A program made the translations under genes and the position numbers. From contig NZ_JAFLNM010000001.1 of NCBI RefSeq assembly GCF_017313275.1, forward strand, positions 62,001-126,000: a stretch of DNA of 64,000 bases, written 5' to 3'. Position 1 is the first letter of the stretch. Each line of letters begins with the position of its first letter. A model generated the notes under the pieces. That model saw only the letters and a program-made list of their open reading frames with translations. It had not been told where the DNA came from and searched no databases. Shown here in pieces: positions 30,407-63,842 of the stretch. Source of the stretch: Flagellimonas profundi. GTDB lineage: Bacteria; Bacteroidota; Bacteroidia; Flavobacteriales; Flavobacteriaceae.

Positions 30407-30475
30407 CAAAATTCAACATAATCCCTAAGCCTGCTATTGTGATATTTCGTGTTTAATTTGTGAAATTTACTGTTT
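30407..30475 (-). promoter_or_regulatory. AraC-type box A plus -7 element
   Basis: The 39-bp box is 30437-30475, with half-sites (plus strand) TTGTGATATT and TTGTGAAATT offset 21 bp. After 22 bp comes the -7 element GAATTTTG (minus strand, 30407-30414). It drives the HMA gene starting at 30369. Confidence 0.8.
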
Positions 30476-30489
30476 CCTGTTGCAGATTA

Positions 30490-31443
30490 TTAATGTTTGT
30501 GTGCGTGGTGGCTGTGGTCTTCTGCCGATTTTTCTCCCTCTGATACGGTAATCGTGAAATCTGCCGTATGCACCACGTTGTCTATTTTGAACTGTACCCA
30601 CACTCTATAAAGCCCTGCCTTTTTGATAAGCGTTTCGGCATAGATTGGGAAATTCTCTTTAGATACCGGGTGTATATGTAGAAAATCCTTATCGGCTTTG
30701 CTTATCATTACGATATGGGCAGTTGCTCCAAGAAAATTTTGCATATCATTTTCCGTTAACTTCTTATCGTCCTTTTCTACTGAAAATTGCAAGCCCTGAT
30801 TTCTGTTTGTTTTGAAATCCTCGCCGTTAAGCAGCGTTACCGTAAAACCATCTACGGTTGAAACCAACTTTGTTTTTAACTCGGTGGTTTGGGCTGATGC
30901 CGTACCTTTTACCTCAATGGTTTGCTTATTGACCTCTCCCTCGGCTCCGTTCGGTTTGTAGTCCGTAAATAACAGGTATTTGCCTGCAGCCGGGAATGTT
31001 TCTGAAACCTTATAAGAACCGTCTGCCTGTTCTTCGGGGTGGATATGGTCAAACCAGGTCAGCTCCTCATTCACTGCCAAAAGGTGCATTTTCATTTCGT
31101 GCACTACTTCCAACGGTACATTTTTACCATGTTCTGTAATGGCGATGGATAGATTTGTCATTTTACCTGCTTCCACATTTTGCGGGTCGGCAGCCACTTT
31201 TACTTTATACTGGCTTTTCTCTTTTTTGACAGGGGTCAAAGCCATGCCACATTTAGGGCATTTATCGCCTTTGTTTCCTGTTACTTCCGGGTGCATCGGA
31301 CAAGCGTATGCGCTGTCGTGATTTGCGTGCTGATGTGCATTCATATCCTCTGATTTTTTATTATTACTTTCCGAATTGTTACAGGCAGATAAGGCTGCCA
31401 GTGAAACAAACGTGCTTAGCAATATGGTTTTTAAATTATTCAC
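30490..31443 (-). CDS. Heavy-metal-binding lipoprotein
   Basis: The 317-residue protein has a lipoprotein signal ('VSLAALSAC', Cys21), a His-rich spacer and the heavy-metal-binding motif C-P-M-H-P with 'GDKCPKCGMAL'. Two beta-sandwich-like halves follow, each with His/Met residues ('HEMKMHLLAV', 'FDHIHPEEQ', 'FLHIHPVS'), and a His-rich tail. It is probably a periplasmic or outer-membrane-attached copper chaperone. Monocistronic with its own AraC-type box. Confidence 0.82.
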   Translation of the reverse strand: MNNLKTILLSTFVSLAALSACNNSESNNKKSEDMNAHQHANHDSAYACPMHPEVTGNKGDKCPKCGMALTPVKKEKSQYKVKVAADPQNVEAGKMTNLSIAITEHGKNVPLEVVHEMKMHLLAVNEELTWFDHIHPEEQADGSYKVSETFPAAGKYLLFTDYKPNGAEGEVNKQTIEVKGTASAQTTELKTKLVSTVDGFTVTLLNGEDFKTNRNQGLQFSVEKDDKKLTENDMQNFLGATAHIVMISKADKDFLHIHPVSKENFPIYAETLIKKAGLYRVWVQFKIDNVVHTADFTITVSEGEKSAEDHSHHAHKH

Positions 31444-31467
31444 TTATCTATCTCTCTTACTACAATA

Positions 31468-31536
31468 CAAATTTCCGCATTAAATAGGTTGTATCTATTG
31501 TGATATTCTTTGTTTGATTTACGATTTTTACTGATT
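31468..31536 (-). promoter_or_regulatory. AraC-type box B plus -7 element
   Basis: Box 31498-31536 has half-sites TTGTGATATT and TTACGATTTT (plus strand). The -7 element GAAATTTG (minus) is at 31468-31475 after 22 bp. The box overlaps the last codons of the MFS gene upstream. It drives the lipoprotein gene starting at 31443. Confidence 0.82.
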
Positions 31537-32724: not shown

Positions 32725-32743
32725 AATCTTAAAATTTATGATA

Positions 32744-32812
32744 CAAAATTGGCAATTTGCTTCGGGCTGTCTATTGTGATATTTCTTGTTTGATTTGTGA
32801 GGTTTACTGATT
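32744..32812 (-). promoter_or_regulatory. AraC-type box C plus -7 element
   Basis: Box 32774-32812: half-sites TTGTGATATT and TTGTGAGGTT. The -7 element CAATTTTG (minus) is at 32744-32751 after 22 bp, 19 bp from the MFS start. Confidence 0.82.
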
Positions 32813-32886
32813 TAGCCCGGTATTGTAAATGCAAAAAGGTCATAGCATAATCGCTACAACCTTTACTTGTTCTTTGAATAGTTCTT

Positions 32887-35187
32887 TTAGTAATTGAGCG
32901 AAAGCCCTGCACCAAAGCCCATATCACTATCATAGTGCGCCCTGATACCGATATGCCTTGTCAGGATGTACCGCAGGTCTGCCATATACTCCAAATCGGT
33001 ATTGACCATAAACCCGGCTCTTAACCGTCTGGAGATAGGTATATCCTCCCGCATCAATGAAACCCTGAAAATACCATCGTGGTAAACTTCTGCCTGTACA
33101 TTAACCAACATCGGTAAGGTGTACATTACTCCTAAGCTCACAGCAGCCCTGTTGTCCTTTTTATTAACCTGTCCGAAGAGGTTTTTCTCGTGCTCGTCCA
33201 TTCCCATTCTGCGGTATCGCCAGTCGAAGCCGACAAAAGGCATCAGCCATTGCATTTTACCGATGTAACGCCCTAAATGGGTTTCCACTTCGTAACCGTG
33301 CATATCGTTGTAACCCAAACGCCACTCTGTGCCTAAGCTGTAACGGGCATTCATCAGCATTGCTTCCCCGTCTATACCGTTGGTAGCAAAATCGCTCTGC
33401 GCCATCAGGTGCGGCATATTGCTTTCACGCTGTAACATCTTGTAGGCTTTAGCCTTGTTGGGCAATTCGGGATTTTTATAATCGTCCACTGCAAACACCC
33501 TGTTCATTCCCGCCATCATATGATACAGGATATGACAATGAAAAAACCAATCGCCCTCGGTATTGGCAAGGAACTCTATGGTATCGGTTTCCATCGGCAT
33601 AATATCAATGATGTTTTTCATCGGTGCATTTTCGCCGTGCTCATTAAGTACCCTGAAATCAAAACCGTGCAGGTGTATCGGGTGGCGCATCATTGAGTTA
33701 TTGTAAATCGTAATCCTTAATACTTCGCCTTTTTTAACAGGTATCTTATCCGTTTCTGTCAAAACCTTATTATCCATACTCCAAACGTAACGGTTCATAT
33801 TTCCCGTTAAAGTAAATTTCAGTTCCTTGACCGGGGCATCTGCCGGAAGCGTGGTATTATGCGGCGATTTCAACATTGAGTAATTCAGTGTTTTAATATC
33901 GCTCAACGCATTGGCATTATAGCGGTTGGGGTCTTCGTCCTTGCTCATATTATGGTCGCCGTGATGCTCCATAGCTGGCTCTTTATCCTTACTTTTCTTA
34001 CTTTTTTCTTCGCCTGTAATCTCCGGGTACATTACTACGTTCATATCCATTTGGTTCAGGCTCATATTCATTCCCATATCGTCAAGGTCGCCGTTCATCT
34101 TCATCATATCGTTCATCATCTGCATACCCTCAAAATATTTCAGGCGTGGCATTTCCCCTACTAACTGTTTTTTACCGTTTCCAATAAAATAACTTGTGGA
34201 TTGGGTGCGGTCTTCAGTGGTTGCCATAAACTCAAACGCTTTACCGTCTTCGGGAATGGTAACGACCACATCGTAAGTTTCAGATACAGCAATTATCAGT
34301 CTGTCCACCTCAACAGGCTCCACATCGTTACCATCACTTGCCACTACGGTAATTTTACCGCCTGCGTAGCGTAGCCAAAAGTAAGACGATGCACCGCCAT
34401 TGGAAATGCGCAAGCGTACTTTATCACCTGCTTTTAAGGGCTTGCCGTCAATGCTTTTTAAATCGGTATGATGATTACCATTCATCATTACACGGTCGTA
34501 ATACACATCGCTCACGTCCATTGCCAACATACGCTTCCATTCGTTGGTCAGCTTGGTTTTGAATTTACCGCTTCTAATGGCTTCGGCGTAGCTTTGTGTT
34601 GCGCCTTTCCTTATCGCAAACCAATCACTTGCAGCGTGCAACATACGGTGTACATTGTTGGGATTGAGGTTCGTCCATTCGCTTAGCATAATGGGGATTT
34701 CCGGCAAATCGTCAATTCCTTTTCTGAATGTTTTATCATTAGCCCTTTTGTGCATTATAAAGCTGCCGTACATACCAATTTGCTCCTGTAAACCTGAATG
34801 GGAATGATACCAATGCGTTCCTGTCTGGATAATCGGGAAACGGTAAGTATAGGTTGTGCCCGGCTCAATCGGCATTTGTGTTAAGAAGGGTACGCCGTCT
34901 TCTTTGTTGGGCAGGAACAAGCCGTGCCAGTGCAGGGATGTACTTTCTTTTAACTGGTTATGCACTACGATTTCCGCCGTGTCGCCCTCTGTAAATTCAA
35001 GTGTGGGCATCGGGATTTGCCCGTTTATAGCGATGGCCCTCTTCTCCTTGCCTGCAAAGTTTACCACCGTATCTTTTACATACAGGTCGTAATGAACTAC
35101 CTTTTGGGCAATGCTGACTTGTGATATAAAGAGTGCCAACAGGGTTAGCGGCAACAGCTTTTTGTAAAAATTTTTTTGATTATCCAT
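32887..35187 (-). CDS. Multicopper oxidase (CopA-type) with C-terminal barrel-like domain
   Basis: The 766-residue exported protein probably oxidises periplasmic Cu(I). After the signal peptide come three cupredoxin domains with the copper motifs H-W-H-G, H-W-Y-H-S-H, H-P-I-H-L-H-G and H-C-H-x3-H ('FHCHILYHMMAGM'). A Met/His-rich insert ('MQMMNDMMKMNGDLDDMGMN') lies before the third domain. From about residue 610 the sequence resembles the CopB/PcoB outer-membrane barrel ('ETHLGRYIGKMQWLMPFVG'). I took Met of 'MDNQKNFYKK' as start; the upstream Met lies in the intergenic leader and would spoil the signal peptide. Confidence 0.88.
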   Translation of the reverse strand: MDNQKNFYKKLLPLTLLALFISQVSIAQKVVHYDLYVKDTVVNFAGKEKRAIAINGQIPMPTLEFTEGDTAEIVVHNQLKESTSLHWHGLFLPNKEDGVPFLTQMPIEPGTTYTYRFPIIQTGTHWYHSHSGLQEQIGMYGSFIMHKRANDKTFRKGIDDLPEIPIMLSEWTNLNPNNVHRMLHAASDWFAIRKGATQSYAEAIRSGKFKTKLTNEWKRMLAMDVSDVYYDRVMMNGNHHTDLKSIDGKPLKAGDKVRLRISNGGASSYFWLRYAGGKITVVASDGNDVEPVEVDRLIIAVSETYDVVVTIPEDGKAFEFMATTEDRTQSTSYFIGNGKKQLVGEMPRLKYFEGMQMMNDMMKMNGDLDDMGMNMSLNQMDMNVVMYPEITGEEKSKKSKDKEPAMEHHGDHNMSKDEDPNRYNANALSDIKTLNYSMLKSPHNTTLPADAPVKELKFTLTGNMNRYVWSMDNKVLTETDKIPVKKGEVLRITIYNNSMMRHPIHLHGFDFRVLNEHGENAPMKNIIDIMPMETDTIEFLANTEGDWFFHCHILYHMMAGMNRVFAVDDYKNPELPNKAKAYKMLQRESNMPHLMAQSDFATNGIDGEAMLMNARYSLGTEWRLGYNDMHGYEVETHLGRYIGKMQWLMPFVGFDWRYRRMGMDEHEKNLFGQVNKKDNRAAVSLGVMYTLPMLVNVQAEVYHDGIFRVSLMREDIPISRRLRAGFMVNTDLEYMADLRYILTRHIGIRAHYDSDMGFGAGLSLNY

Positions 35188-35253
35188 TTTAAAAATCGCA
35201 TTGGTTATAAAAGTTAAAAGGCATTGCCCAATGAGCAATGCCTTACTGGGTTA

Positions 35254-35735: not shown

Positions 35736-35957
35736 TTATTGTGAAATGGGTTCAGCTTTAAACCCTTTTTTCTTGATGATGGCGACAATCTCGTCTTCGG
35801 TAATACCCTCTGCTTTTACAGTAAGTATTTTTTCGGCGTTCGTAGTATCAACGTTCCATTCGCAGATACCGCCTGCGTTATCTAAATCTGCCTGCACTTT
35901 TGATACACAGTTACTGCAATTAAGGTTTGTCTTGAATTGAAGATTTTTGCTTTCCAT
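35736..35957 (-). CDS. HMA domain protein, second CopZ-like copy
   Basis: A 73-residue single HMA domain with C-x-x-C (NLNCSNCVSK, residues 14-17). It is the first gene of the operon HMA-DUF3347-multicopper oxidase. It is a paralogue of the copy at 30148-30369; most differences are conservative. Likely a cytoplasmic Cu(I) carrier. Confidence 0.88.
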   Translation of the reverse strand: MESKNLQFKTNLNCSNCVSKVQADLDNAGGICEWNVDTTNAEKILTVKAEGITEDEIVAIIKKKGFKAEPISQ

Positions 35958-35989: not shown

Positions 35990-36058
35990 CAAATTTCGGG
36001 ACAGAATGCGCTATACTGTTTGTGAAATTCCTTGTTTGATTTATGATATTTACTGATT
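35990..36058 (-). promoter_or_regulatory. AraC-type box D1 plus -7 element
   Basis: Box 36020-36058: half-sites TTGTGAAATT and TTATGATATT. The -7 element GAAATTTG (minus) is at 35990-35997 after 22 bp. It drives the HMA-DUF3347-oxidase operon. Confidence 0.84.
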
Positions 36059-36079
36059 GTACTTCAAAACAGCTTCAAC

Positions 36080-36118
36080 TTGTAATATTTCGGTTTTGTT
36101 TTGTGACTTTTACTGATT
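36080..36118 (-). promoter_or_regulatory. AraC-type box D2 (upstream copy)
   Basis: Half-sites TTGTAATATT and TTGTGACTTT plus the TACTGATT end. Its first base is exactly 60 bp from that of D1, in the same orientation. It has no -7 element of its own at the usual distance, because D1 occupies that spot. It may be an auxiliary site or the remnant of a lost gene's promoter. Confidence 0.72.
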
Positions 36119-47688: not shown

Positions 47689-47757
47689 TAAAATTATAGA
47701 AGCTGCTGCGCACAAGTATTATAATTTTCTTTGTTAGATTTGTGATTTTTACTGATT
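47689..47757 (-). promoter_or_regulatory. AraC-type box E plus -7 element
   Basis: Box 47719-47757: half-sites TTATAATTTT and TTGTGATTTT, then TACTGATT. The -7 element TAATTTTA (minus, 47689-47696) is at 22 bp. It drives the fur-like gene. Confidence 0.74.
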
Positions 47758-48406: not shown

Positions 48407-49702
48407 CTATTTTATCTGTCCGGTAGCTTTGTGGTACACAGCCTCGGCAATCTTGTACCGTACTTTTGCATCCAACATATTGCTATATGCTCTTTGCCAA
48501 AGCGTTTCTGCTATCAATACATCTTCCCCGGTAATGGTTCCGGCTTTAAAGCGGTCATTACTTAGTTTCAGGTTCTCGTCTGCTTCAATTAACGATGCCT
48601 GCATTAAATCAATGTTGTTCGCCTGCAATTGCAGGTTAAGCGTAGCTTGCTCAATCTCCACAGTGATTTGGCTTTTCAGTTCTTTCAGACCATATTCAGC
48701 CGAACGAATGTTGGCTTCCTGCTGCTTTGCTTTTTCTTTTCTGCTGCCCCAGTCGAAAACCGCAATTTTAACGCTTAACATACCGAAGTAGGTCAGCATA
48801 TGGTTTTTGGTCGGGTCGCCAAAGTTGATGCCGTCTTTTCCAAAAGCTGCCATTCCGTTAAGTGATAAACCTACCGATGGTTTCAGGTTGGCTTTGAGCA
48901 TACTTTTTGTAAGCTCGCTCATTTTAATGCCATTGGTTGCCAACTCAATTTCCGGACGGTTCGCATCGGCAGCCTCCAAAATACCCTGCTTTAAAAATTC
49001 CCTCGTACTCAATGTATCGGCTACGTCTATACCTGTGGGGTCTTCCATCCCGATTAACTGGGTCAATCTTCTTTTTGCCAAGATGAGCTTATTATCCGCA
49101 GCCTGCAAACGGGCTTCGTTTTCGTTCTGGAGCACCTTTGCCCGTAACACATCGTTTTTGTAAATCAATCCTGCCTCAAACTGGTTATTCAGGAATGTAT
49201 AATGCGAAGCCAGTTGCTTTTTAACCTGCTGTTCCATTTTGATTTCTTCCTTAGCCTGAACCACAAGCCAGTAAGCGGTTTCGGTAGCCAGTAATACTTC
49301 ATCCTCTACCAATCGTTGTTGAGCGTTGCTCATCTGTATATTGGTTTCTGCCATCTGCTTACCGTACTTAATCTTACCGCCAGTATAAATCGGCTGTGTA
49401 ACGCTGAACATTGGTGCAAACCCATATTCGGGCAGCATCGTATTCAATGGCTCTCCAAAGTAAAAGGCTGTTGCCGATGCATCCAGTTTTGGTCTGCCTG
49501 CCACATCTGTAATCAGTTTGTCGGATTGGGTGGCAATTACGTCTTCTTTGGCTTTGCCTATCCTGTTGTTGTTTTTTAATGCCAGTTCTTTACTTTCCGC
49601 AAGGGTTAACTGCTGTTGTGCAAAGAGGTTGTTTGTCCCCTGCAAAAGAGCGAAACCGCATACAAAAACCTTTATGACTGTTTTATATCTTTTCTGTAAC
49701 AT
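48407..49702 (-). CDS. TolC-family outer-membrane efflux protein
   Basis: The 431-residue exported protein (signal peptide ending 'NLFAQQQ') has the duplicated helical layout of TolC, with 'LTLAESKELALKNN' at the start of repeat 1 and long coiled-coil helices. It is the channel of the tripartite pump whose RND and adaptor genes lie immediately upstream; it starts 9 bp after the pump gene stop. Confidence 0.9.
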   Translation of the reverse strand: MLQKRYKTVIKVFVCGFALLQGTNNLFAQQQLTLAESKELALKNNNRIGKAKEDVIATQSDKLITDVAGRPKLDASATAFYFGEPLNTMLPEYGFAPMFSVTQPIYTGGKIKYGKQMAETNIQMSNAQQRLVEDEVLLATETAYWLVVQAKEEIKMEQQVKKQLASHYTFLNNQFEAGLIYKNDVLRAKVLQNENEARLQAADNKLILAKRRLTQLIGMEDPTGIDVADTLSTREFLKQGILEAADANRPEIELATNGIKMSELTKSMLKANLKPSVGLSLNGMAAFGKDGINFGDPTKNHMLTYFGMLSVKIAVFDWGSRKEKAKQQEANIRSAEYGLKELKSQITVEIEQATLNLQLQANNIDLMQASLIEADENLKLSNDRFKAGTITGEDVLIAETLWQRAYSNMLDAKVRYKIAEAVYHKATGQIK

Positions 49703-49711
49703 AATCCCTTT

Positions 49712-52700: not shown

Positions 52701-52837
52701 ACTGTTACACGGGGGTCTTCACTTCTTGGCATCTTCATTAGTGAAATTAATCCGGCAAGTACCATAATAATAGTAATCGCTATTGGTACTTGCGGAAATT
52801 TCATTGCCGCTTCAATGAGGTTTATCTTTCTTTTCAT
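49712..52837 (-). CDS. RND efflux pump, HAE type
   Basis: The 1041-residue inner-membrane proton antiporter has twelve helices and two large periplasmic loops. Helix 4 reads 'VLGMVVDDAIIVVDNYIE', the double Asp of hydrophobe/amphiphile exporters, not the DFGxxVDGA pattern of metal pumps. It therefore probably exports organic compounds, although it shares an operator with the two divalent-metal efflux units. Gap to the adaptor is 3 bp. Confidence 0.92.
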   Translation of the reverse strand: MKRKINLIEAAMKFPQVPIAITIIMVLAGLISLMKMPRSEDPRVTVRQGLVVAFYPGADEEQIEKEVTDKLEQYLFGFEEIKKEKTHSESKPGQVVVTVELQDYVKDTKKFWNTLQHGLDTNMPLALPRGVQGPYVNSDFGDVVVQMIAVSAPGRSYAQLENYLDELEDGIKTIPQVSKIKRYGGQKQQIFITLREDVLKQYGFGINKIANTLSQQNVTIPSGDIEIGKNRFLIFTDSQYQNENEIGNLIVYSSPQGGNIRLRDIANIDRKYEDLKSKITVSGNDVMMLTVEMQPGQNIVDLGNALAQKVAEVKEILPSDVQVNTIVDQPEVVKMNLGHFFIEFGIAIAAVILVVMLLLPFRVATISAIAAPVTIAVTFAILNLLGIEMHQVSLAAMIIVLGMVVDDAIIVVDNYIEKVDEKIPSWTAAWQSATQLMVPIFTATLTIVLSFLPLAFTLTGLTREFVQWIPITVSIALAVSFLVALFLTPYMCYHFLKKGLKKHDDKPKKRNFLDRMQDGFDRAIEFCMKWQKTTLVAGLVIFLLSFVVGSQVKTEFFPIVERNQFNLELWMDNGTNIHETEAAVRKIEKEIAGDKRIVNTASFIGTSSPRFYSTYAPEHPRENFAQIFINTTSKDATAEMIDEFVQKFNNYLPNGYVRVRQLSKKQQPAPIEIRVIGKDMTEQKKVAKQVAAILENTKGSNWVRTDYQNDYVGLKAVVKEDVALRLGVTKAQIAQALGAKIKGYPVSQMWEGNKAIDIVLRTDESDRENLDALGNMYINSTFGAKVPLKQVVDLQPSWHTGAIVHRNGLRTLTVSSEAQLGRKPAEVFAEVQPKIDSLKLPKGVKIAYGGEYEDGLESGPKMGKAFMISFVLIFLVLLFQFKRVGKVFIVLASFPLSLLGAMLGLFLTGYEFGFMAIIGITALLGIVVRNGIILVDYADELVREHGHSIREAALFAAKRRMRPIFLTSMAAAIGLIPLMASGSPEWGPISSTISIGILVSMITTLFIVPVLYYRFVKPSKNKQLDEQQELNADAHNQKYLS

Positions 52838-52840
52838 AAA

Positions 52841-53911
52841 TTATTCAGATTTTGGGGCTGATGCGGTTACGGATGCTGTTTGCGTTTTTACTTTCTGCCC
52901 GTCGTTCACGTTGTTTTGTCCGGCAAGGATAATTTTCTGGCTCTCGTTAAGACCATCGGTAATAATAACCTCATCGCCCATGATTTTGCCCACTGTAACC
53001 CTTGTCAGTTTAGCGGTGTTGTTTTTATCCACCACATACACGTGTGGGATTTTATCTACATTATTGATGATAGCAGTAAGCGGTACACGCACCTGCCTAA
53101 CCTTTACCGGAACTCCTGCAAGTACTTCTGTAATCATTCCCGGCATTAGCACACCACCCGGATTGTCCAAGCGAACTTTCAGCGTGTAGGCTTTTGAAAT
53201 TTCATCAGCTACGGGATTGATTATAGTGATTTTGCCAGTGAAATTGCGTTGCAGTGTAGGAATGTTTACGGCTACCTGCATTCCTTGTTTGAAGCTCCCG
53301 ATTTCGCTTTCGGGTACGGCAAACTGTGCATATACCATATCTGTTTTTACAATGGTAAAGGCAGGAACGCCCGGTGCTGCCATACCGCCAACCTCGGCAG
53401 TTTTAACGGTTATAATACCATTGGTCGGTGAATGCAAACGGCTGTCGGTAATACGCTTGCGGTTGATTTTTTTATTGGCTTCCGCCTGCGCTACTTTAGT
53501 TTTGATGTCGATATAGTCCTTTTCGGGGAAACTTCCTTTTTTATACAATTCATCAAATCTTCTGAACGCATCCTGGCTCTGGTCTAAGCTGGCATTGGCA
53601 ATCTGCAATGCAGCTTCGTACTCAGTGGCATCAATGCTTGCAAGGAACTGTCCTTTGCTGACACGTTGCCCCTCATTCACGCCCACGCTGTTTATCGTTC
53701 CGGGAACGGCAAAACTTACGGTGGTCATATTGTCGGGTACAATAGAACCCGAATAGGAAACGGATTGCTCGGTTTCCGAACTGCTGATAGTGGCCACGGT
53801 GACTACCGGAGGCTCATCTTTTAACTGTTTTTCTTCTTTTTGTTTGCAACTCTGTATCAATCCTGCTCCGATAAGGAAGATGGATAACAAACCAATTTTA
53901 CTTGTTCTCAT
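52841..53911 (-). CDS. RND periplasmic adaptor lipoprotein
   Basis: The protein begins 'MRTSKIGLLSIF' with lipobox 'GAGLIQSC' (Cys21). The barrel-sandwich halves are 'VSFAVPGTINSVGVNEGQRV' and 'LHSPTNGIITVKTAEVGG', around a short alpha hairpin. I chose this start because the longer frame (to 54004) would run through the -7 element and operator and lacks a signal peptide. It is the first gene of adaptor-pump-channel. Length from here is 356 residues. Confidence 0.9.
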   Translation of the reverse strand: MRTSKIGLLSIFLIGAGLIQSCKQKEEKQLKDEPPVVTVATISSSETEQSVSYSGSIVPDNMTTVSFAVPGTINSVGVNEGQRVSKGQFLASIDATEYEAALQIANASLDQSQDAFRRFDELYKKGSFPEKDYIDIKTKVAQAEANKKINRKRITDSRLHSPTNGIITVKTAEVGGMAAPGVPAFTIVKTDMVYAQFAVPESEIGSFKQGMQVAVNIPTLQRNFTGKITIINPVADEISKAYTLKVRLDNPGGVLMPGMITEVLAGVPVKVRQVRVPLTAIINNVDKIPHVYVVDKNNTAKLTRVTVGKIMGDEVIITDGLNESQKIILAGQNNVNDGQKVKTQTASVTASAPKSE

Positions 53912-53954
53912 TATAATAACAACTTTAATTTTTAGTGATAATGCTTCTTCATTG

Positions 53955-53991
53955 CAAAATTGCCAACAGGTTTTGGGAACTTGGTTGCAAA
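53955..53991 (-). promoter_or_regulatory. Second-type operator, copy 3, with -7 element
   Basis: Operator GTTTTGGGAAC-TT-GGTTGCAAA (53970-53991), 7 bp, then CAATTTTG (minus, 53955-53962), 43 bp from the adaptor start. It controls the tripartite RND operon. Confidence 0.74.
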
Positions 53992-54115
53992 TACAAAACA
54001 TCAATTATTAATAATGGCAAAGGTCGGGTTACAGCTAAGGCGCAGCTATACGAAATGACGGGTAAAAGTTGTGAAATTTACTTTTTTGATTTGGTGGTAT
54101 CTACCTGAAACAAAT

Positions 54116-54193: not shown

Positions 54194-54784
54194 TCAATGC
54201 GGGGTATGCTCTTCGTCCATCTGCATAGTAACGTTTTGCCCCTGTTCCTGCTTTAACTGCTTGAAATAGCTTGATGTAAAGCCGGTGTGTTTTTTCAACT
54301 GGTTGGAAAGGTATGCCTGACTGCTGTAACCCAGCACGTGGGCAATATCGGTCAGCGACATTTCGGTATGTACCAAAAGGTCTTTTACCTTTTCAATCTT
54401 CCGATGAATGATGTACTTTTCGAGTGTTATTCCCTCCACCGAAGAAAATAAGGCACTCAATGTATCGTAGTTCTTGTGCAGCTTACCACTGATTAAGGTT
54501 GTAAATTTGGTAGGAGTGCCGCTTTGCAGTTGCAACGTGATACCTTTCTCCACCAACTCTTTTATCCTGTTTATCGTCTTTTGGTTCTTGTCGTACATCA
54601 GTTCTAAGCCGATGCTTTTCAGCATCGTTTTTATGGCTCCCAACTTTTGCGAAAAGTCTGCCGTATCTTTTATGATGACTTGCCCCAGTTTTATATCCAA
54701 GACCTCAAAACCCAAAGCTGTTAATTCCTGTTCAAGAACATACGTACATCTATTGCACACCATTCCTTTTATTAATAGTGTCAT
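54194..54784 (-). CDS. HMA-AraC fusion regulator
   Basis: The 196-residue protein has an N-terminal HMA-like fold with C-x-x-C at residues 10-13 ('GMVCNRCTYVLEQEL'), a linker, and a C-terminal AraC DNA-binding domain with two helix-turn-helices ('MSLTDIAHVLGYSSQAYLSN' and 'KKHTGFTSSYFKQLKQE'). It is best read as a one-component metal sensor and activator. Its own promoter contains the 39-bp box, so positive autoregulation is likely. It is the leading candidate to bind all thirteen boxes. Confidence 0.88.
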   Translation of the reverse strand: MTLLIKGMVCNRCTYVLEQELTALGFEVLDIKLGQVIIKDTADFSQKLGAIKTMLKSIGLELMYDKNQKTINRIKELVEKGITLQLQSGTPTKFTTLISGKLHKNYDTLSALFSSVEGITLEKYIIHRKIEKVKDLLVHTEMSLTDIAHVLGYSSQAYLSNQLKKHTGFTSSYFKQLKQEQGQNVTMQMDEEHTPH

Positions 54785-54820: not shown

Positions 54821-54889
54821 CAAAATTCTGCATTTGCCACCGACAAACTATTATGATATTCCGGCTTTGTTTTGTGAAATTTTATGAAA
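54821..54889 (-). promoter_or_regulatory. AraC-type box F plus -7 element
   Basis: Box 54851-54889: half-sites TTATGATATT and TTGTGAAATT; the end (TTATGAAA) departs from the usual TACTGATT. The -7 element GAATTTTG (minus, 54821-54828) is at exactly 22 bp. It drives the HMA-AraC gene. Confidence 0.8.
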
Positions 54890-54990
54890 TCGAGTGCTGC
54901 AACATTAAATATCATAAACTAAACAAGGAAAAGTACATAGCAGCTCCCGCTAATCTTACGGAATTTTGTAACAGACAACATCCGTATAAA

Positions 54991-55257
54991 ATGAAGAATA
55001 AAAAGATTAACGAACATCAGGTTTTAAAGGTGCTTAAAGATTACAACACAGGCAAAAGCGGACTGGAGCTTTTTGAGAAATACGGCGTTTACGGCACTAA
55101 CATTTTTGAACTGAAACACAAATACAAGGATTTGGGGATGGATATTCTTGTAGAACTGGTAAATTTAAACGAAGAAAACAGCAGGCTGAAAACAATGTAT
55201 GCCGAATTGTGCATACAGCACCGGAAGCTCAAAGACCTGTTGAAAGAAGATTTCTGA
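54991..55257 (+). CDS. Solitary IS3 OrfA-like helix-turn-helix protein
   Basis: The protein begins 'MKNKKINEHQVLKVLKDYNT' and has an 88-residue HTH plus leucine-zipper-like helix ending 'LKTMYAELCIQHRKLKDLLK', the layout of IS3-type OrfA. No OrfB, inverted repeats or slippery site follow. I chose this start because the longer frame to 54853 crosses box F. It may be a transposase remnant or a domesticated DNA-binding protein. Confidence 0.62.
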   Translation: MKNKKINEHQVLKVLKDYNTGKSGLELFEKYGVYGTNIFELKHKYKDLGMDILVELVNLNEENSRLKTMYAELCIQHRKLKDLLKEDF

Positions 55258-56857: not shown

Positions 56858-57274
56858 TTATAGTCCGTTTTGCTTTTCCTGTTGTCTTTTGATGATTTCG
56901 AGCTTGTTTTTTCGTATCTGCTTAAAATGGGCAGATGTTAATCCTGTGTAAGTCATTAATTGCTCGGATAGTTCAGTTGGCTTCTGATAGCCCAACGCTT
57001 TAGCGATTTGTGACAACGATTGCTCGGTGTACACCAGTAACTCTTTTACCTTTTCGATAATACGCCTGATATAGATAATTTCAAGGCTTATATCGCATTT
57101 AACGAGAAACAGATTGTTCAACTGTTGATAATCCGTTTTAAGTTCGTTAGTAACCTGCACGGCAAACGGTGCAGATATACCTGTATCCAATCGGGTCTGA
57201 ATTATCCGGTCTGCTACATTGCAAACTTTCGTCATTATGTCCGAACAGTCGCCTGAATTTTGTTTCTGTAACAT
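56858..57274 (-). CDS. AraC-family regulator without HMA domain
   Basis: The 138-residue protein has a short N-terminal helical region with two Cys (residues 10 and 18) and a C-terminal AraC domain ('QSLSQIAKALGYQKPTELSE', 'TYTGLTSAHFKQIRKNK'). An in-frame stop lies 12 bp upstream of the Met, so no hidden HMA domain precedes it. It lies 107 bp after the HMA gene (57382) and may share transcription from box G. It may bind the same box as the HMA-AraC protein, perhaps as an antagonist or co-regulator. Confidence 0.82.
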   Translation of the reverse strand: MLQKQNSGDCSDIMTKVCNVADRIIQTRLDTGISAPFAVQVTNELKTDYQQLNNLFLVKCDISLEIIYIRRIIEKVKELLVYTEQSLSQIAKALGYQKPTELSEQLMTYTGLTSAHFKQIRKNKLEIIKRQQEKQNGL

Positions 57275-57381: not shown

Positions 57382-57627
57382 TTATCCGCAGCATCCTGTT
57401 GAACAACTTGAAGCCTTTTCGCTGTCGTCGCCGCCAACTTTGTAGCCTGCTTTTTCAATAGCCTCAACCAACTCTTCTTTCACTTCATCGCTTTCAACCG
57501 AAACAGATAATTTTCCTGCTTCCAATTTTTCTACTTTAATGCCGTCAATGTCTTTGATTGCTCCGTTTACTCTTGACTGGCAATGTGCACTTTGCATATC
57601 TGGTATGCTTAATTCTACATTTTTCAT
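57382..57627 (-). CDS. HMA-like protein with single-Cys motif and Cys-rich tail
   Basis: The 81-residue protein has an HMA fold, but the metal loop is 'PDMQSAHCQSRVN', with one Cys preceded by S-x-H instead of C-x-x-C. The tail S-S-C-S-T-G-C-C-G supplies three more Cys. The same variant loop is found in the first HMA-like domain of the CopA ATPase nearby. Probably a copper carrier with an altered site. Confidence 0.82.
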   Translation of the reverse strand: MKNVELSIPDMQSAHCQSRVNGAIKDIDGIKVEKLEAGKLSVSVESDEVKEELVEAIEKAGYKVGGDDSEKASSCSTGCCG

Positions 57628-57652: not shown

Positions 57653-57721
57653 CAAATTTCCGTATTAAACGGGGTGTTACTATTATGGTATTCCTTGTAA
57701 GATTTGTGATTTTTACTGATT
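57653..57721 (-). promoter_or_regulatory. AraC-type box G plus -7 element
   Basis: Box 57683-57721: half-sites TTATGGTATT and TTGTGATTTT. The -7 element GAAATTTG (minus, 57653-57660) is at 22 bp. It drives the HMA-like gene and probably the downstream AraC gene. Confidence 0.83.
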
Positions 57722-57735: not shown

Positions 57736-58245
57736 TTATTCCACGATTAGTTTGCCTTTCATATAGATGTAATGACCGGGAAACGAGCATAAGAAATCAT
57801 ATGAACCTTTAGTCGGAGCCGTAAAAGTAATTTCTGTGGTTTGCCCGCCGCCAATCATTTCTGTTTTAGCGATTACGGCGTTTTCCATTCCTTTAGGTAT
57901 GTAGCCGTTGTCTTTAGCATCTATTGCAGCATTAGCAAAGGCATTAAAGTCCGTGCCCTGGGCAAGAATGACAACATTGTGTCCCATTGCCTCAATCGGC
58001 ACTTTACCCACGTGCTTTAGGATGAGCTTTACGGTTTCGCCTGCTTTGGTTTTCAGTTCGGTTTTGTCGAACTTCATATCATCGCCGCCATTTATGGTAA
58101 TTACGTTTTCGTTCCCTGTTTCTGCCGGGGCAACAGTTTCTTCTGTTACAGGCTTATTACTCTCCTGTGTGTTCTGTTCTTTTTGCTGATTGTTGTTACA
58201 GGCAGTAAATGCAATTACCGACAATGCTAACACTAACTTTTTCAT
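57736..58245 (-). CDS. Azurin-like blue copper lipoprotein
   Basis: The 169-residue protein has a lipoprotein signal ('ALSVIAFTAC', Cys16), a low-complexity linker and a cupredoxin domain with the type 1 copper ligands: His in 'EAMGHNVVILAQ' and C-x4-H-x3-M in 'FLCSFPGHYIYMKG'. It is a periplasmic electron carrier, here probably part of copper handling. Monocistronic with its own box. Confidence 0.93.
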   Translation of the reverse strand: MKKLVLALSVIAFTACNNNQQKEQNTQESNKPVTEETVAPAETGNENVITINGGDDMKFDKTELKTKAGETVKLILKHVGKVPIEAMGHNVVILAQGTDFNAFANAAIDAKDNGYIPKGMENAVIAKTEMIGGGQTTEITFTAPTKGSYDFLCSFPGHYIYMKGKLIVE

Positions 58246-58279: not shown

Positions 58280-58348
58280 CAAATTTCAGTACAACAGGTT
58301 AGTTCCTTATTACGCTTTTCCGTGTTTGATTTGTGATATTTACTGATT
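58280..58348 (-). promoter_or_regulatory. AraC-type box H plus -7 element
   Basis: Box 58310-58348: half-sites TTACGCTTTT and TTGTGATATT. The -7 element GAAATTTG (minus, 58280-58287) is at 22 bp, 34 bp from the azurin start. Confidence 0.82.
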
Positions 58349-58410: not shown

Positions 58411-58755
58411 TTAAGCAGCTTTAATCATTTCTTCACAAGCCTGTGCACATTTTCTACACGCTTCAGCGCATTCTTTACAGTGCTCCATTCCCATATTTGC
58501 GTGTGCTTCGCACTCATCGGCGCAAGCATTGCAAATTTCGATGCACAGTTTACAAATTTCTTTGCTGAATTTACCATCAAGGCTCAGAACATTTGCTGCT
58601 GCCTGGCATATAGCTACGCATTCAAGATTAAGCTGAATACACTTTTTAAGATGTGCTACATCTTTCTCGTTTAAACACGCTACGGCACACTGATTACATA
58701 GAGCTATACAATTAAGGCAGGCTTCGATGCAAGATTGGAATTTTGTTTGTATCAT
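58411..58755 (-). CDS. Cys-rich four-helix copper-binding protein (DUF326)
   Basis: The 114-residue protein has fourteen Cys in helical C-x3-C-like spacing ('CIEACLNCIALCNQCAVAC', 'CKLCIEICNACADECEAHA', 'CKECAEACRKCAQACEEMI'). This is the pattern of the copper storage protein (Csp) family, whose bundle stores many Cu(I) ions. There is no signal peptide, so it is the cytosolic type. Confidence 0.9.
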   Translation of the reverse strand: MIQTKFQSCIEACLNCIALCNQCAVACLNEKDVAHLKKCIQLNLECVAICQAAANVLSLDGKFSKEICKLCIEICNACADECEAHANMGMEHCKECAEACRKCAQACEEMIKAA

Positions 58756-58799: not shown

Positions 58800-58868
58800 T
58801 AAATGTTAGACCTTAACACAAATGATTTCGTGTAAAATTCCTTGTTTAATTTGTAAGATTTACTGATT
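58800..58868 (-). promoter_or_regulatory. AraC-type box I with weak -7 element
   Basis: Box 58830-58868: half-sites GTGTAAAATT and TTGTAAGATT, end TACTGATT. At 22 bp the -7 region is AACATTTA (minus), the poorest of the set. It drives the DUF326 gene. Confidence 0.72.
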
Positions 58869-59433: not shown

Positions 59434-59502
59434 CAAATCTACCTATAAGCTAAGGGCTTGAAAGTGCGATATGACTGCTAAGATTTGTAATTTTTACGGG
59501 TG
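59434..59502 (-). promoter_or_regulatory. AraC-type box J (degenerate) plus -7 element
   Basis: Box 59464-59502: half-sites GTGCGATATG and TTGTAATTTT; the end reads TACGGGTG. The -7 element TAGATTTG (minus, 59434-59441) is at 22 bp and fits the general TAnnTTTG consensus perfectly. It drives the tetR-like gene. Confidence 0.62.
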
Positions 59503-60009: not shown

Positions 60010-60963
60010 TTAATGATGATGATGGTGGTCGTGTCCTGACGGGTCTGCCTTTACAGTACACAACATCGAATTGTCGTGCTTGTGTTCAGGCGTTTCTAAT
60101 TGTATAGTGACGTGATGGATGTTCAGGTGTTCCAGTGTGTGTTCGACTTTGCGGAGCAATGTTTCACTTTCCCCAATCGTCATTTTCCCATCCACAACCA
60201 AGTGGCAAGTAAGTGCATTCAAGCCGCTTGTAATCGTCCATATATGTAGGTCGTGCATACCGATAACACCATCCGTTTTCAGGATTTTTTCTGTTACCTT
60301 TTCGACCTCCACATTTTCCGGTGTTCCCTCCATCAGTATATGTACCGATGATTTGGTAACATAGTAACCGCTTCGCAATACCAGTATGGAAACGATAATA
60401 CTTGCCAATGGGTCTGCCCATCCCCAACCGAAGAACATAATCAGTAAAGCTGCAATGATAGCACCTACCGAACCCAGCATATCGCTGATAACGTGAAGGT
60501 AGGCTCCACGCATATTGAGGTTTTCTTTTACATCAGCACCACGTATCATTATCCAGGCTACAAGTACATTAACCAGTAAGCCGATGAATGCCACAATGAG
60601 CATACCGCTTGATTGTATTTCCGGTGGGTTCTGAAAGCGTTCTATCGCTTCGTAAATAATATAGCCTGAAATCAGTATCAGCGTTGCGCCGTTGATAACT
60701 GCTGCAAGTATTTCAAATCGTTTGTAGCCATACGTCTTCCCGTAGTCAGCTACTTTACTGCTGAACTTAAATGCCATCAATGCAATGAATAATGATACTG
60801 CATCGCTCAACATATGCCCGGCATCGGCTAATAGAGCAAGGCTATTGGTCAGTAATCCGCCGATTACCTCTATTGCCATATAAGCAGTGATGATAATTAA
60901 GCTAATGGTCAGTGTCTTTTTATTTGCACTGTGCGAGTGGCTGTGCCCGTGGTCATGTCCCAT
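60010..60963 (-). CDS. CDF-family cation exporter (CzcD/ZitB-like)
   Basis: The 317-residue proton-coupled exporter has six helices. The two H/D-x3-D metal sites are 'LADAGHMLSDAVSLF' in helix 2 and 'HVISDMLGSVGAI' in helix 5, the His/Asp set of Zn2+-type members. It has a His-rich start (GHDHGHSHSHS), a His-rich end, and a C-terminal cytoplasmic dimer domain ('HDLHIWTITSGLNALTCHL'). It begins 11 bp after DUF5661. Confidence 0.94.
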   Translation of the reverse strand: MGHDHGHSHSHSANKKTLTISLIIITAYMAIEVIGGLLTNSLALLADAGHMLSDAVSLFIALMAFKFSSKVADYGKTYGYKRFEILAAVINGATLILISGYIIYEAIERFQNPPEIQSSGMLIVAFIGLLVNVLVAWIMIRGADVKENLNMRGAYLHVISDMLGSVGAIIAALLIMFFGWGWADPLASIIVSILVLRSGYYVTKSSVHILMEGTPENVEVEKVTEKILKTDGVIGMHDLHIWTITSGLNALTCHLVVDGKMTIGESETLLRKVEHTLEHLNIHHVTIQLETPEHKHDNSMLCTVKADPSGHDHHHHH

Positions 60964-60974
60964 ATTTTCTTGAA

Positions 60975-61247: not shown

Positions 61248-61276
61248 TGTTATATTTAATTTTTGATTTGCTGTAG

Positions 61277-61344
61277 CAAATTTCACAGCAAAACATTTGT
61301 AATTAGTTCGTTATTCCTTGTTCCATTTGTAAGGTTTACTTCTT
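61277..61344 (-). promoter_or_regulatory. AraC-type box K plus -7 element
   Basis: Box 61306-61344: half-sites GTTCGTTATT and TTGTAAGGTT. The -7 element GAAATTTG (minus, 61277-61284) is at 21 bp, one less than the others. It overlaps the CopA stop codon. It drives DUF5661-CDF-lipoprotein. Confidence 0.75.
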
Positions 61345-63747
61345 CCATTTCAAACGTAAACTGTTACTTACCACGCTAACACTACTTAGAGCCATCGCTG
61401 CACCTGCAATCATCGGGTTTAATAAAAAGCCATTAATGGGGTAAAGAATACCTGCGGCAATCGGAATACCAATAAGGTTATAGATGAACGCCCAAAACAG
61501 GTTTTGCTTAATGGTGGCTACTGTCTGCTTTGACAATCTAATCGACTGTGGTATTTTGGTCAGGTCTGATGAAATGATGGTCATTTTAGCCACGTCCATT
61601 GCGATATCCGAACCTTTGCCCATTGCTATACTTACGTCGGCTGTTGCCAGTGCGGTACTGTCATTGATACCATCCCCAACCATCGCTACCATTTTGCCTT
61701 GTGCTTGCAGTTCTTTTACAAAGTCTGCTTTGTGCTGTGGCAATACTTCTGCCTTATAATGCTTGATGCCTGTTTGTAATGCAATCGCTTTTGCGGTAGC
61801 TTCATTATCTCCGGTCAGCATATAAAGGTCTATGCCCATTTCCTGCATTTCTTTGATAGCTGCTACCGATGTTTCTTTGATTTTATCGGCAATAGCCACT
61901 ACCGAAAGAGCTTGTTTGCTGTTCGCAAACCAAATAACGGTTTTAGACTGTGTGCCCCATTCGTCCGCCTGCTGTTGCAGTTGGTCGGCAATGGTAATAT
62001 TGTTTTCGGCTAACAGCTTTTTATTACCTACATAGTAGGTATCGTTGTTGTAATCGGCTTTTGCGCCTTTACCTGTGATACTATCGAAGTTGGATAATGC
62101 AGTGGCGGAAACGCCTTCCAAATGTTTCACAACGGCTTCAGCTAATGGGTGCTCCGATTGCTTTTCAATACTCAATAAAACATCTTTAGTTGTATCATCA
62201 TTGTTCAGCCATTGTATGCCAGTTACCTGTGGTCTTCCCTCGGTAATTGTTCCGGTTTTATCCAGTACGATAGCATTTATTTTTTTCGCTAATTCAAGAC
62301 TTTCGGCATCTTTAATCAGGATGCCGTTTTCAGCACCTTTACCCACGCCTACCATAATAGCGGTCGGTGTAGCTAAGCCTAAAGCACAAGGACAAGCGAT
62401 AACCAGTACGGTAACGGCTGCTAAAAGACCTTGCACTACGCCGTTGTCGCCTCCTAAGAAGTACCAAAGAATAAATGTAAGAATGGCAATGCTGATTACT
62501 ACGGGAACGAAAATCCCTGCGATTTTATCTACCAGTTTTTGTACCGGAGCTTTACTCCCCTGTGCATCCTGTACCATTTTGATGATGTGGGCAAGCATTG
62601 TTTCTTTACCCACTTTTACCGCCTTAAATTGGAAGCTGCCTTTTTGGTTGATGGTTCCTGCAAATACTTTTTCGTTCTCTTTTTTCAGTACCGGAATAGG
62701 CTCGCCGCTTAGCATACTTTCATCTACATACGAGTTGCCCGATACGACCATTCCGTCCACTGCGATTTTTTCGCCCGGCTTAACCAAAATAATGTCGCCT
62801 GCGTTTACATCTTCGATAGCTTTTTGTCTTTCGGTTCCGTCAGCTTCTATCACTATAACCGTTTTCGGCTGTAAGCCCATCAGCTTTTTAATAGCTGATG
62901 AGGTGTTGCCTTTGGCTTTTTCTTCCAATAGCTTACCTAACAGGATGAATGCGATAATAACGGCTGCTGCTTCAAAATAGACGTGAGCGTGTAAACCCCT
63001 TTGATGCCAAAAGTCCATAAACAGCATATTGAACACGCTGAATATGTAAGCAATACCTGTACTCAATGCTACAAGCGTGTCCATATTGGCAGAACGATGT
63101 TTCGCCTGCTTCCACGCATTGATAAAAAAGTCTTTGCCTAACCAAAGCACTACCGGAGTGGAGAATGCCCACATTATTTCATTACCATAGGGCATATCCA
63201 TAAAGAACATACCGATAATGACTACCGGGAGCGATAAGATTACCGCCCAAATGGTTTTGTTTTTAAGTTTTCTGAATTTTTCGGCGTGGATAGCTTCTAA
63301 GGTTTCCTGCTGCTTGTTCTCGTCTTCAAGTAAAAGGTCATAACCGCCGTCCTGCACCGCTTTTCTGATTTGCTCGGAATTGGTCATATTTGGCAGGAAC
63401 TCGACGGTAAGATTGCCTGTACCGTAATTCACTTCGGCATTTACCACACCCGGAGCGTATTTAACCATACTTTCGGCACTGCCTGCACAGGATGCACAGG
63501 TCATACCTAAAACGGGATAGGATTGTTTAACGGTCGGAACGCCGTAGCCTAAATCTTTGATTGCTTTTACAGCTTCGCCTACTACCTCATTATCATTTAC
63601 GGTAATAGCCGCTCTGCGGTTATTTAGCTCTACCTGATAGGTTTCTATGCCTTTTACCTGTGCAAGTCCTTTTTCAACGATTAATGCACAGTGCTCGCTT
63701 TCTACATCCTCTAAAGGAATGTATATTGTTTCATTATTTGTTGCCAT
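61336..63747 (-). CDS. copA: CopA-type Cu(I)-exporting P-type ATPase
   Basis: The 803-residue PIB-1 ATPase has two N-terminal HMA-like domains. The first has the variant loop 'EDVESEHCALIVEKG' with one Cys, the second the normal 'GMTCASCAGSAE'. Then come 'MLSGEPIP', C-P-C in 'IACPCALGLATPTA', phospho-site DKTGTITEG, 'SEHPLAEAV' and 'GDGINDSTALATA'. Helices 7 and 8 contain the Cu(I) residues Y-N ('AFIYNLIGIP') and M-x2-S-S ('AAMALSSVSVVSNSLRL'). Its stop lies in box K and its promoter is box L. Confidence 0.95.
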   Translation of the reverse strand: MATNNETIYIPLEDVESEHCALIVEKGLAQVKGIETYQVELNNRRAAITVNDNEVVGEAVKAIKDLGYGVPTVKQSYPVLGMTCASCAGSAESMVKYAPGVVNAEVNYGTGNLTVEFLPNMTNSEQIRKAVQDGGYDLLLEDENKQQETLEAIHAEKFRKLKNKTIWAVILSLPVVIIGMFFMDMPYGNEIMWAFSTPVVLWLGKDFFINAWKQAKHRSANMDTLVALSTGIAYIFSVFNMLFMDFWHQRGLHAHVYFEAAAVIIAFILLGKLLEEKAKGNTSSAIKKLMGLQPKTVIVIEADGTERQKAIEDVNAGDIILVKPGEKIAVDGMVVSGNSYVDESMLSGEPIPVLKKENEKVFAGTINQKGSFQFKAVKVGKETMLAHIIKMVQDAQGSKAPVQKLVDKIAGIFVPVVISIAILTFILWYFLGGDNGVVQGLLAAVTVLVIACPCALGLATPTAIMVGVGKGAENGILIKDAESLELAKKINAIVLDKTGTITEGRPQVTGIQWLNNDDTTKDVLLSIEKQSEHPLAEAVVKHLEGVSATALSNFDSITGKGAKADYNNDTYYVGNKKLLAENNITIADQLQQQADEWGTQSKTVIWFANSKQALSVVAIADKIKETSVAAIKEMQEMGIDLYMLTGDNEATAKAIALQTGIKHYKAEVLPQHKADFVKELQAQGKMVAMVGDGINDSTALATADVSIAMGKGSDIAMDVAKMTIISSDLTKIPQSIRLSKQTVATIKQNLFWAFIYNLIGIPIAAGILYPINGFLLNPMIAGAAMALSSVSVVSNSLRLKWKK

Positions 63748-63773
63748 ATTTCGATTGCTTTATTTTCATAATG

Positions 63774-63842
63774 CAAAGGTGGCAACAATAAAGAGGACTG
63801 TTATTGTGAAATTCTGGGTTTGATTTGTAAGATTTACTTAAA
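63774..63842 (-). promoter_or_regulatory. AraC-type box L plus -7 element
   Basis: Box 63804-63842: half-sites TTGTGAAATT and TTGTAAGATT, end TACTTAAA, which includes the stop codon of the AraC gene upstream. At 22 bp lies CACCTTTG (minus, 63774-63781). It drives copA. Confidence 0.78.

What the first reader, a model, noticed from the sequence alone, without database searches (positions are those of the whole stretch)
30407..63842. Thirteen copies of a 39-bp AraC-type box define an island-wide metal regulon
Seen directly: plus-strand consensus TTGTGATATT-N11-TTGTGATATT-TACTGATT at 30437, 31498, 32774, 36020, 36080, 47719, 54851, 57683, 58310, 58830, 59464, 61306 and 63804. The two half-sites are direct repeats offset 21 bp, the classic spacing for a two-HTH AraC protein. 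In 12 of 13 copies a GAAATTTG-like -7 element follows at 21-22 bp (22 in 11 of 12) and a start codon 19-44 nt later. Three AraC proteins are encoded nearby. Inference: one regulator family activates all of these units from a site at or just upstream of the -33 position. I know of no described regulon with this exact layout.
Basis: partly seen in the sequence, partly recalled or inferred. Interest (0 to 1): 0.93.

Follow-up and report, generated by a model that had tools for sequence, protein, structure and literature searches.

The report
Copper-chaperone AraC switch across Bacteroidota
Fifteen copies of one DNA element sit in the promoters of a genomic island of copper-type genes, and they are likely switched on by a sensor protein whose predicted structure joins a copper-chaperone-like domain to an AraC-type DNA-binding domain; the same pair of gene and DNA element recurs across the Bacteroidota, where it would be a main way of sensing excess copper.

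Summary
The 13 boxes are real, lie where stated, and are promoter elements of minus-strand genes; a weight matrix adds two (54900 +, 54048 -). Read with the genes, the box is AATCAGTAAAnnTCACAA-ATC-AAaCaaggAATATCACAA: two 18-bp half-sites 21 bp apart, followed about 22 bp later by a Bacteroidota -7 element. Two of the three AraC proteins carry an N-terminal CxxC domain, predicted (for the one modelled) to fold like CopZ copper chaperones. Of 75 named loci around homologues of this HMA-AraC protein, 64 hold the box (>=16 bits); permuted matrices give 0.55 sites in all 75 together. 187 of 205 sites lead into gene families of the island, chiefly copper genes, and TTTG starts exactly 26 nt after the box in 135 of 153 distinct sites. 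Divergent members keep a 21-bp tandem operator with altered letters, including two chromosomal copA promoters of this genome. The HMA-AraC N-terminus matches in 213 of 395 Bacteroidota genomes, CueR (curated cut-off) in none, the CsoR family in 108. Best reading: a Cu(I)-responsive one-component activator with a conserved operator. Copper binding, DNA binding and direction of regulation are untested. Nine full-text searches of an open-licence library found no description.

The parts
30437..30475 (-). operator box (CopZ-like gene 30148-30369)
   Evidence: -7 GAATTTTG at offset 22
31498..31536 (-). operator box (HMBD lipoprotein 30490-31443)
32774..32812 (-). operator box (MFS transporter 31528-32724)
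36020..36058 (-). operator box, promoter-proximal of a tandem pair (CopZ-like 35736-35957, then DUF3347 and multicopper oxidase)
36080..36118 (-). operator box, upstream member of the pair; no -7 element of its own
47719..47757 (-). operator box (Fur-family gene 47223-47648)
   Evidence: -7 TAATTTTA at 22
54048..54086 (-). additional weak operator box (RND operon 54004-48407)
   Evidence: 24.2 bits; E 0.12 with R1 in the genome, 1.6e-6 with R2; -7 GACCTTTG at 22
54851..54889 (-). operator box of the type A HMA-AraC gene (autoregulation, inferred)
   Evidence: 22 such sites in other loci
54900..54938 (+). additional operator box, divergent (88-aa OrfA-like gene 54991-55257)
   Evidence: 27.6 bits; E 4.1e-5; -7 GAATTTTG at 22
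57683..57721 (-). operator box (CopZ-like 57382-57627, AraC 56858-57274)
58310..58348 (-). operator box (cupredoxin 57736-58245)
58830..58868 (-). operator box (DUF326 protein 58411-58755)
59464..59502 (-). operator box, degenerate (157-aa gene 58927-59400)
61306..61344 (-). operator box, degenerate (DUF5661 60975-61286, then CDF 60010-60963)
   Evidence: -7 at offset 21
63804..63842 (-). operator box (copA 61336-63747), overlapping the 3' end of the third AraC gene
   Evidence: sites just after the AraC gene in other loci
54194..54784 (-). HMA-AraC type A, 196 aa: CopZ-like residues 1-66 (CxxC 10-13) + AraC DNA-binding domain 64-184; likely regulator
   Evidence: HTH_18 E 1.5e-14; model pLDDT 86; folds
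63838..64000 (-). C-terminal end of HMA-AraC type B, 187 aa, complete at L032:839-1402 (window 63838-64401); likely second regulator
   Evidence: HTH_18 E 1.6e-14; aligned with type A, CxxC kept
56858..57274 (-). AraC-type protein of 138 aa without HMA domain
   Evidence: HTH_18 E 5.8e-8, just under its cut-off; near-full-length relatives in 16 of 75 loci
54991..55257 (+). 88-aa protein like the OrfA of IS3 elements, divergent from the HMA-AraC gene
   Evidence: HTH_Tnp_1 E 0.0024, below cut-off; 16 of 75 loci; 32 database clusters
61336..63747 (-). CopA-type P1B ATPase with HMA domains
57736..58245 (-). cupredoxin (plastocyanin/azurin family)
   Evidence: PF00127 E 1.1e-17
58411..58755 (-). 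DUF326 four-helix copper-storage-like protein
   Evidence: PF03860; function recalled
32887..35238 (-). multicopper oxidase
42338..46654 (-). CusA-type RND pump fused to an outer-membrane efflux domain
48407..54004 (-). second RND efflux operon (TolC, RND, MFP)
35736..35957 (-). CopZ-like 73-aa HMA protein
   Evidence: NCBIfam CopZ E 1.5e-5, below cut-off
57382..57627 (-). CopZ-like 81-aa HMA protein
   Evidence: NCBIfam CopZ E 1.6e-9, below cut-off
60010..60963 (-). CDF cation efflux protein

Best explanation
The boxes are conserved promoter-proximal elements that are likely operators of HMA-AraC, an AraC-type protein with a predicted CopZ-like domain, which would switch on the copper genes behind them when Cu(I) rises. 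Shown here: box anatomy, fixed promoter geometry, genomic linkage of box and regulator gene, copper genes downstream, predicted fold. Inferred: Cu(I) binds the CxxC of the N-terminal domain, directly or passed on from CopZ-type chaperones of the same regulon; the metal-loaded domains pair; the dimer then places one AraC DNA-binding domain on each 18-bp half-site, two helical turns apart on one face of the DNA, with the downstream half-site ending where a -33 element would be, so that it can contact sigma/RNA polymerase (class II activation). The promoters have an off-consensus -7 (TA in 15 of 142) and no -33 TTTG, as expected of activator-dependent promoters. The type A gene itself carries the box, so that loop would be autoregulated. 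Cu(I)-driven dimerisation is the least certain step (about 0.35); HMA-AraC binding the box about 0.9; activation rather than repression about 0.8.
Confidence: 0.8

Rival explanations
1. HMA-AraC binds the box as a repressor that leaves when it binds copper, in the manner of CsoR or CopY.
For: The downstream half-site ends at the -33 position, where a bound protein could block RNA polymerase. Many metal sensors are repressors (established knowledge).
Against: -7 elements are off-consensus (TA only 15 of 142) and there is no TTTG 16-23 nt upstream (0 of 142), so the bare promoters look weak; spacing to the -7 is fixed almost to the base pair, which an activator touching polymerase needs more than a blocking repressor. 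[quoted passage not shown]
Confidence: 0.14
2. Another regulator of the island binds the box: the 138-aa AraC without HMA, the Fur-family protein, the 157-aa TetR-like protein, or the 88-aa OrfA-like protein.
For: All four genes lie in the island and each has a box in front of it or of the small gene(s) before it.
Against: Near-full-length relatives are in 16, 9, 4 and 16 of 75 loci, while the box is in 64. The loci were found by HMA-AraC, so its presence in all 75 is by construction; the counts for the others are not. They cover at most 10 kb on each side.
Confidence: 0.05
3. The box plus -7 element is a promoter of an alternative (ECF) sigma factor, not an activator site.
For: Fixed spacing between the two elements; a copper-responsive ECF sigma factor, CorE, is known (PMC10141476, passages read).
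Against: A 39-bp tandem repeat of 18-bp half-sites is far longer than a -35 element; the -7 element keeps TTTG as in the primary-sigma motif TAnnTTTG (PMC7366714, passage read); no sigma-factor family was met among the 27 proteins scanned with Pfam.
Confidence: 0.03
4. The copies are a dispersed repeat spread by the mobile element, without regulatory role.
For: The island lies beside conjugation genes and is shared at high identity across genera.
Against: The copies sit in promoters at one spacing (12 of the 13 stated sites, both additional ones, and 142 of 153 sites elsewhere); the same architecture with different letters is kept in divergent chromosomal loci.
Confidence: 0.01

Closest known systems
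AraC of Escherichia coli on araI1-I2 (AraC/XylS family)
   Same: AraC-type double-HTH DNA-binding domain; tandem direct half-sites 21 bp apart, the downstream one at the edge of the core promoter (AraC side recalled).
   Different: Sensor is a predicted CopZ-like ferredoxin fold of about 66 residues instead of an arabinose-binding cupin; signal predicted to be Cu(I); Bacteroidota -7 promoter.
CueR (MerR family)
   Same: Cytosolic one-component activator of copA, as proposed here.
   Different: No MerR match in the regulators; 0 of 395 Bacteroidota genomes reach the CueR cut-off, though 237 have a weaker MerR-type match.
CsoR and CopY
   Same: Cytosolic copper sensors of copper efflux genes (CopY: PMC10141476, passages read; CsoR partly recalled).
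   Different: Unrelated folds and repressors (recalled); the CsoR family is in 108 of 395 genomes, 20 of 171 genera, against 213 and 121 for the HMA-AraC N-terminus.
YbtA
   Same: AraC-type regulator tied to copper (PMC8725597, search listing and start of abstract only; the name YbtA is recalled).
   Different: Responds to a siderophore complex; no metallochaperone domain (recalled).
CopZ metallochaperones (6ff2, 2qif)
   Different: Here fused to a DNA-binding domain; motif MVCxRC.

Membership tests
AraC/XylS regulators | C-terminal AraC DNA-binding domain with two HTH motifs | tested here: met
AraC/XylS regulators | operator of tandem half-sites about two helical turns apart | tested here: met
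   offset exactly 21 in the boxes and the single peak in divergent loci
AraC/XylS regulators | binding to that operator and contact with RNA polymerase | not testable with these tools
   only linkage and geometry
HMA / CopZ-like copper-binding domain | ferredoxin-like fold | tested here: met
HMA / CopZ-like copper-binding domain | CxxC metal site | tested here: met
   C10 and C13 invariant in 53 aligned rows and in the 27 rows of A3
HMA / CopZ-like copper-binding domain | match to curated profiles | tested here: inconclusive
   no Pfam HMA match at E <= 0.001; NCBIfam CopZ E 3.1e-4, below its cut-off
HMA / CopZ-like copper-binding domain | Cu(I) binding | not testable with these tools
   none
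CueR (MerR family) | MerR-type DNA-binding domain | tested here: not met
   regulators match AraC models; no CueR over cut-off in this genome
CsoR family | PF02583 domain in the regulator | tested here: not met
   the genome's two PF02583 matches lie elsewhere, C2:718013 and C2:1680313
Bacteroidetes conjugative transposon as carrier | tra gene cluster adjoining the island | tested here: met
   TraG P-loop, TraM, TrbL and DUF4138 (TraN-like by recall) in L032
Bacteroidetes conjugative transposon as carrier | defined ends with integrase and attachment repeats | tested here: inconclusive
   tyrosine recombinase at C2:173138; no shared exact repeat >=15 bp between window 27301-30700 and C2:159000-178500

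The most novel reading that the evidence does not exclude
HMA-AraC is the general cytosolic copper sensor of the phylum Bacteroidota: a separate family of metal sensors in which a copper chaperone has become the sensor half of an AraC activator, whose Cu(I)-paired chaperone domains set the dimer on a 21-bp tandem operator. It does the work of CueR, CopY and CsoR, has diversified into several operator dialects per genome, and travels on conjugative elements as a self-contained copper regulon of up to 15 operators.
Probability: 0.6. Interest if true: 0.85.

Novelty: new variant of a known kind. Interest (0 to 1): 0.74.

Why it matters
How Bacteroidota sense cytosolic copper looks open in the papers seen: an HMM survey of marine bacteria reports that its few Bacteroidota representatives had only two-component and ECF-sigma homologues (PMC10141476, passages read), and a genome study of Bizionia argentinensis found MerR- and CopY-like proteins without the copper sites, lists two ArsR-family proteins as cytoplasmic candidates, and does not mention AraC (PMC11213822, passages read). 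A sensor-operator pair whose sensor is in about half of the sampled genomes, with an operator sharp enough to list targets from sequence, would supply a candidate, make copper regulons of the phylum predictable, offer a copper-inducible promoter for these bacteria, and show how a mobile element brings its own regulatory code.

Tried and rejected
Exact consensus scan: finds 6 of 13 at 3 mismatches, too strict. R1 across 395 genomes: 22 genomes, so this exact box is not phylum-wide; this led to the generalised model R2. First spacing test in loci: 14 of 30 loci were not located because only one strand was read, and 8 box-less loci showed no peak at 21 with the narrow half-site matrix; redone on both strands with a matrix trained on the named loci, which finds 18 of 30. 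The 11 loci had been looked at by eye first. Control: of its 35 'other AraC' loci five hold HMA-AraC paralogues; without them 30 loci and the same single hit remain. The control drew on L001-L030, which hold one of the five. Specificity code (Tyr/His against C/T): not significant after correction for relatedness, kept as a hint only; five His-type proteins were left out of the raw count because the helix pattern did not match them, and four of these have C in the operator, which weakens the raw test; the pattern for the tree set was widened to admit them. Attachment repeats: none found. Repressor, ECF promoter, dispersed repeat and other regulators: see rivals. Literature: ten searches, nine aimed at a copper/AraC/HMA regulator in Bacteroidota and one at the promoter; none listed a description of this regulator or operator; the library holds open-licence papers only, and most listed papers were seen as listings.
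Full report
1. The observation. They belong to the minus strand, where most genes of the island lie, so the motif is best read as AATCAGTAAAnnTCACAAATCaAACaaggAATATCACAATA. The stated consensus finds 6 of 13 at up to 3 mismatches and none in 100 shuffles. With each site left out in turn, a weight matrix scores the 13 at 18.7-54.2 bits; the best non-site in 64 kb scores 4.6. Two further copies appear: 54900 on the plus strand, divergent from the AraC gene, and a weak one at 54048 before an RND operon. The real repeat is an 18-bp half-site, AAnCAnnnAATATCACAA, twice at an offset of 21 bp. In the whole genome (4.0 Mb) the box model, built from these 15 sites, finds nothing outside the island at E < 0.25; 14 island sites have E <= 4.1e-5 and the fifteenth 0.12 (150 of 4079 first-look candidates were scored).

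2. Promoter geometry. In the window an exact TTTG -7 element follows in 10 of 13 sites and a TTTA form in two more; all but one of these twelve are at offset 22. Over 153 distinct sites (>= 16 bits in the 75 loci, with enough flank), TTTG begins exactly 26 nt after the box in 135 and 25 nt after it in 7. Of the 142 sites with TTTG, the first two bases of the -7 are GA in 75, CA in 48, the canonical TA in 15, GT in 3 and TT in 1; none has TTTG 16-23 nt further upstream. The primary-sigma consensus of the phylum is TAnnTTTG at -7 with TTTG near -33, the latter not identified in F. johnsoniae (PMC7366714, passages read). The downstream half-site therefore ends where a -33 element would lie and the -7 is off-consensus: the expected anatomy of a class II, activator-dependent promoter (inference).

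3. Genes. Pfam and NCBIfam give CopA, a second P1B ATPase, CusA- and CusB-type pumps, a multicopper oxidase, DUF3347, CopZ-like proteins (below the curated cut-offs), a cupredoxin, a DUF326 protein, a CDF transporter and a Fur-family protein. The right flank holds conjugation genes (TraG, TraM, TrbL, DUF4138), and stretches of the island are shared at 76-90% DNA identity, 8.7-18.7 kb in all, with each of the 16 best of the 75 loci. Some loci with the box are near-identical between genera: L118 Nubsella against L122 Empedobacter, 99.8% over 20.5 kb. Mobility is inferred; ends were not found.

5. Linkage. 181 sites >= 20 bits lie in 62 of them; 20 column-permuted matrices gave a mean of 0.2 sites and at most 2. 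At >= 16 bits, 64 of 75 loci are positive (permuted mean 0.55 sites, maximum 4). In 55 loci one HMA-AraC gene was recognised; 45 of these have the box. Around 30 loci of other AraC genes of this genome (101 kb), one hit of 9.1 bits appears. Of 205 sites >= 12 bits, 187 lead into families of the island by best BLAST match; the 18 others are the 88-aa protein (15), an MFS transporter (2, one contig) and a DoxX-like protein (1, named by eye). Near-duplicates exist (L071/L072, L118/L122/L125/L126, L077/L107 on one contig) and L069-L075 are close to the window, so the counts are not independent events.

6. Generality. In 11 loci without the box, including a chromosomal HMA-AraC locus of this genome (L033), the half-site matrix from the window shows one peak, at offset 21 (mean 12.4; other offsets 3.2-6.7). 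A matrix trained on the named loci and tested on 30 loci from another search finds the operator in the AraC flanks of 18, against 0.3 for permuted matrices; without the window's own locus and one that shares a training site it is 16 of 28; 12 are negative. A generalised model with the -7 element (R2, 52 sites) hits this genome 17 times at E < 1e-4: the 15 island sites, many of them training sites, and two outside the training set, each just before a chromosomal copA-type gene (60-63% identical to the island's CopA) in a locus with an HMA-AraC paralogue. Two of five chromosomal paralogues have no operator nearby. In 119 other genomes of the family, 18 of 19 with E <= 1e-4 have HMA-AraC (E <= 1e-8) against 43 of 100 of the rest; at E <= 0.01 it is 31 of 43 against 30 of 76. 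Of the 19 strongest new loci, 14 lead straight into copA; of all 29 fetched, 18 do.

7. Phylum survey. In 395 Bacteroidota genomes the HMA-AraC N-terminal profile matches in 213 (E <= 1e-5; weak matches may include other HMA proteins), the CsoR family in 108 and CueR over its curated cut-off in 0, although 237 have some MerR-family match and the best reaches 137.6 of 147.4 bits. By genus: 121, 20 and 0 of 171. HMA-AraC and CsoR avoid each other (both in 16, tallied by eye; Fisher), but most CsoR genomes come from one family, so this is partly ancestry. The exact box is in 22 of 395 genomes at E <= 0.01, 17 of them with HMA-AraC; all 7 at E <= 1e-3, this genome included, have it.

8. Helix and operator. 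Among 93 distinct helix-site pairs, Tyr in the recognition helix goes with C and His with T at column 16 (57/9 against 6/21, p 5e-9), less so at column 37. Five His-type proteins were missed by the pattern of that count; four of them have C. On a tree of 99 proteins only 5 supported independent pairs exist; column 16 goes the same way in 2.2 and never the other way, which cannot reach significance; column 37 shows nothing. Suggestive only.

9. Mechanism and rivals. I take HMA-AraC to be a Cu(I)-responsive class II activator, type A being autoregulated through its own box. Anatomy, linkage and predicted fold are shown; copper binding, dimerisation by copper, DNA binding and direction of control are inferred. 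Repression is the main rival.

10. Known or new. AraC-type one-component control and HMA domains are both known; their fusion with this operator was not found in nine full-text searches aimed at it of an open-licence library. Two papers read in passages point to a gap: PMC10141476 (Bacteroidota representatives with only two-component and ECF homologues) and PMC11213822 (no MerR or CopY protein with a copper site in Bizionia, two ArsR-family candidates, AraC not mentioned). I call it a new variant of a known kind.

Noticed in passing
window 54991-55257 (+): An 88-aa protein resembling the OrfA of IS3 transposases (HTH_Tnp_1 E 0.0024) is conserved divergently from type A HMA-AraC in 16 of 75 loci (65-98% identity), in 15 cases behind its own box; 32 database clusters. 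It looks like a domesticated transposase part, perhaps an extra regulator.
   Followed up: partly
window 56858-57274 and 57382-57627 (-): An AraC protein without HMA domain lies behind a CopZ-like protein whose motif is SAHC rather than CxxC; relatives of both occur together in several loci. It could be a split or decoy version of HMA-AraC.
   Followed up: partly
L118, L122, L125, L126: A locus with HMA-AraC, copA and boxes is 99.5-99.8% identical over 13.7-20.5 kb between Nubsella, Empedobacter, Chryseobacterium and Moheibacter records: very recent transfer, or contaminated assemblies.
   Followed up: partly
window 28691-29831 (-): An IS3-type element (OrfA-like HTH pieces and an OrfB integrase core) sits at the left edge of the copper island.
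   Followed up: no
window 36020-36118: Two boxes 60 bp apart in tandem before one CopZ-like gene; only the proximal one has a -7 element, so the distal one may be an auxiliary site.
   Followed up: no
window 46695-47108 (-): A 137-aa fragment of a P1B ATPase lies between the Fur-family gene and CusA: probably the remnant of a broken copy.
   Followed up: no
G000:C2:749348 and C2:1596235: Two more chromosomal HMA-AraC paralogues have no operator detected by R2 at E <= 1; they may use other operators or sense another metal.
   Followed up: no
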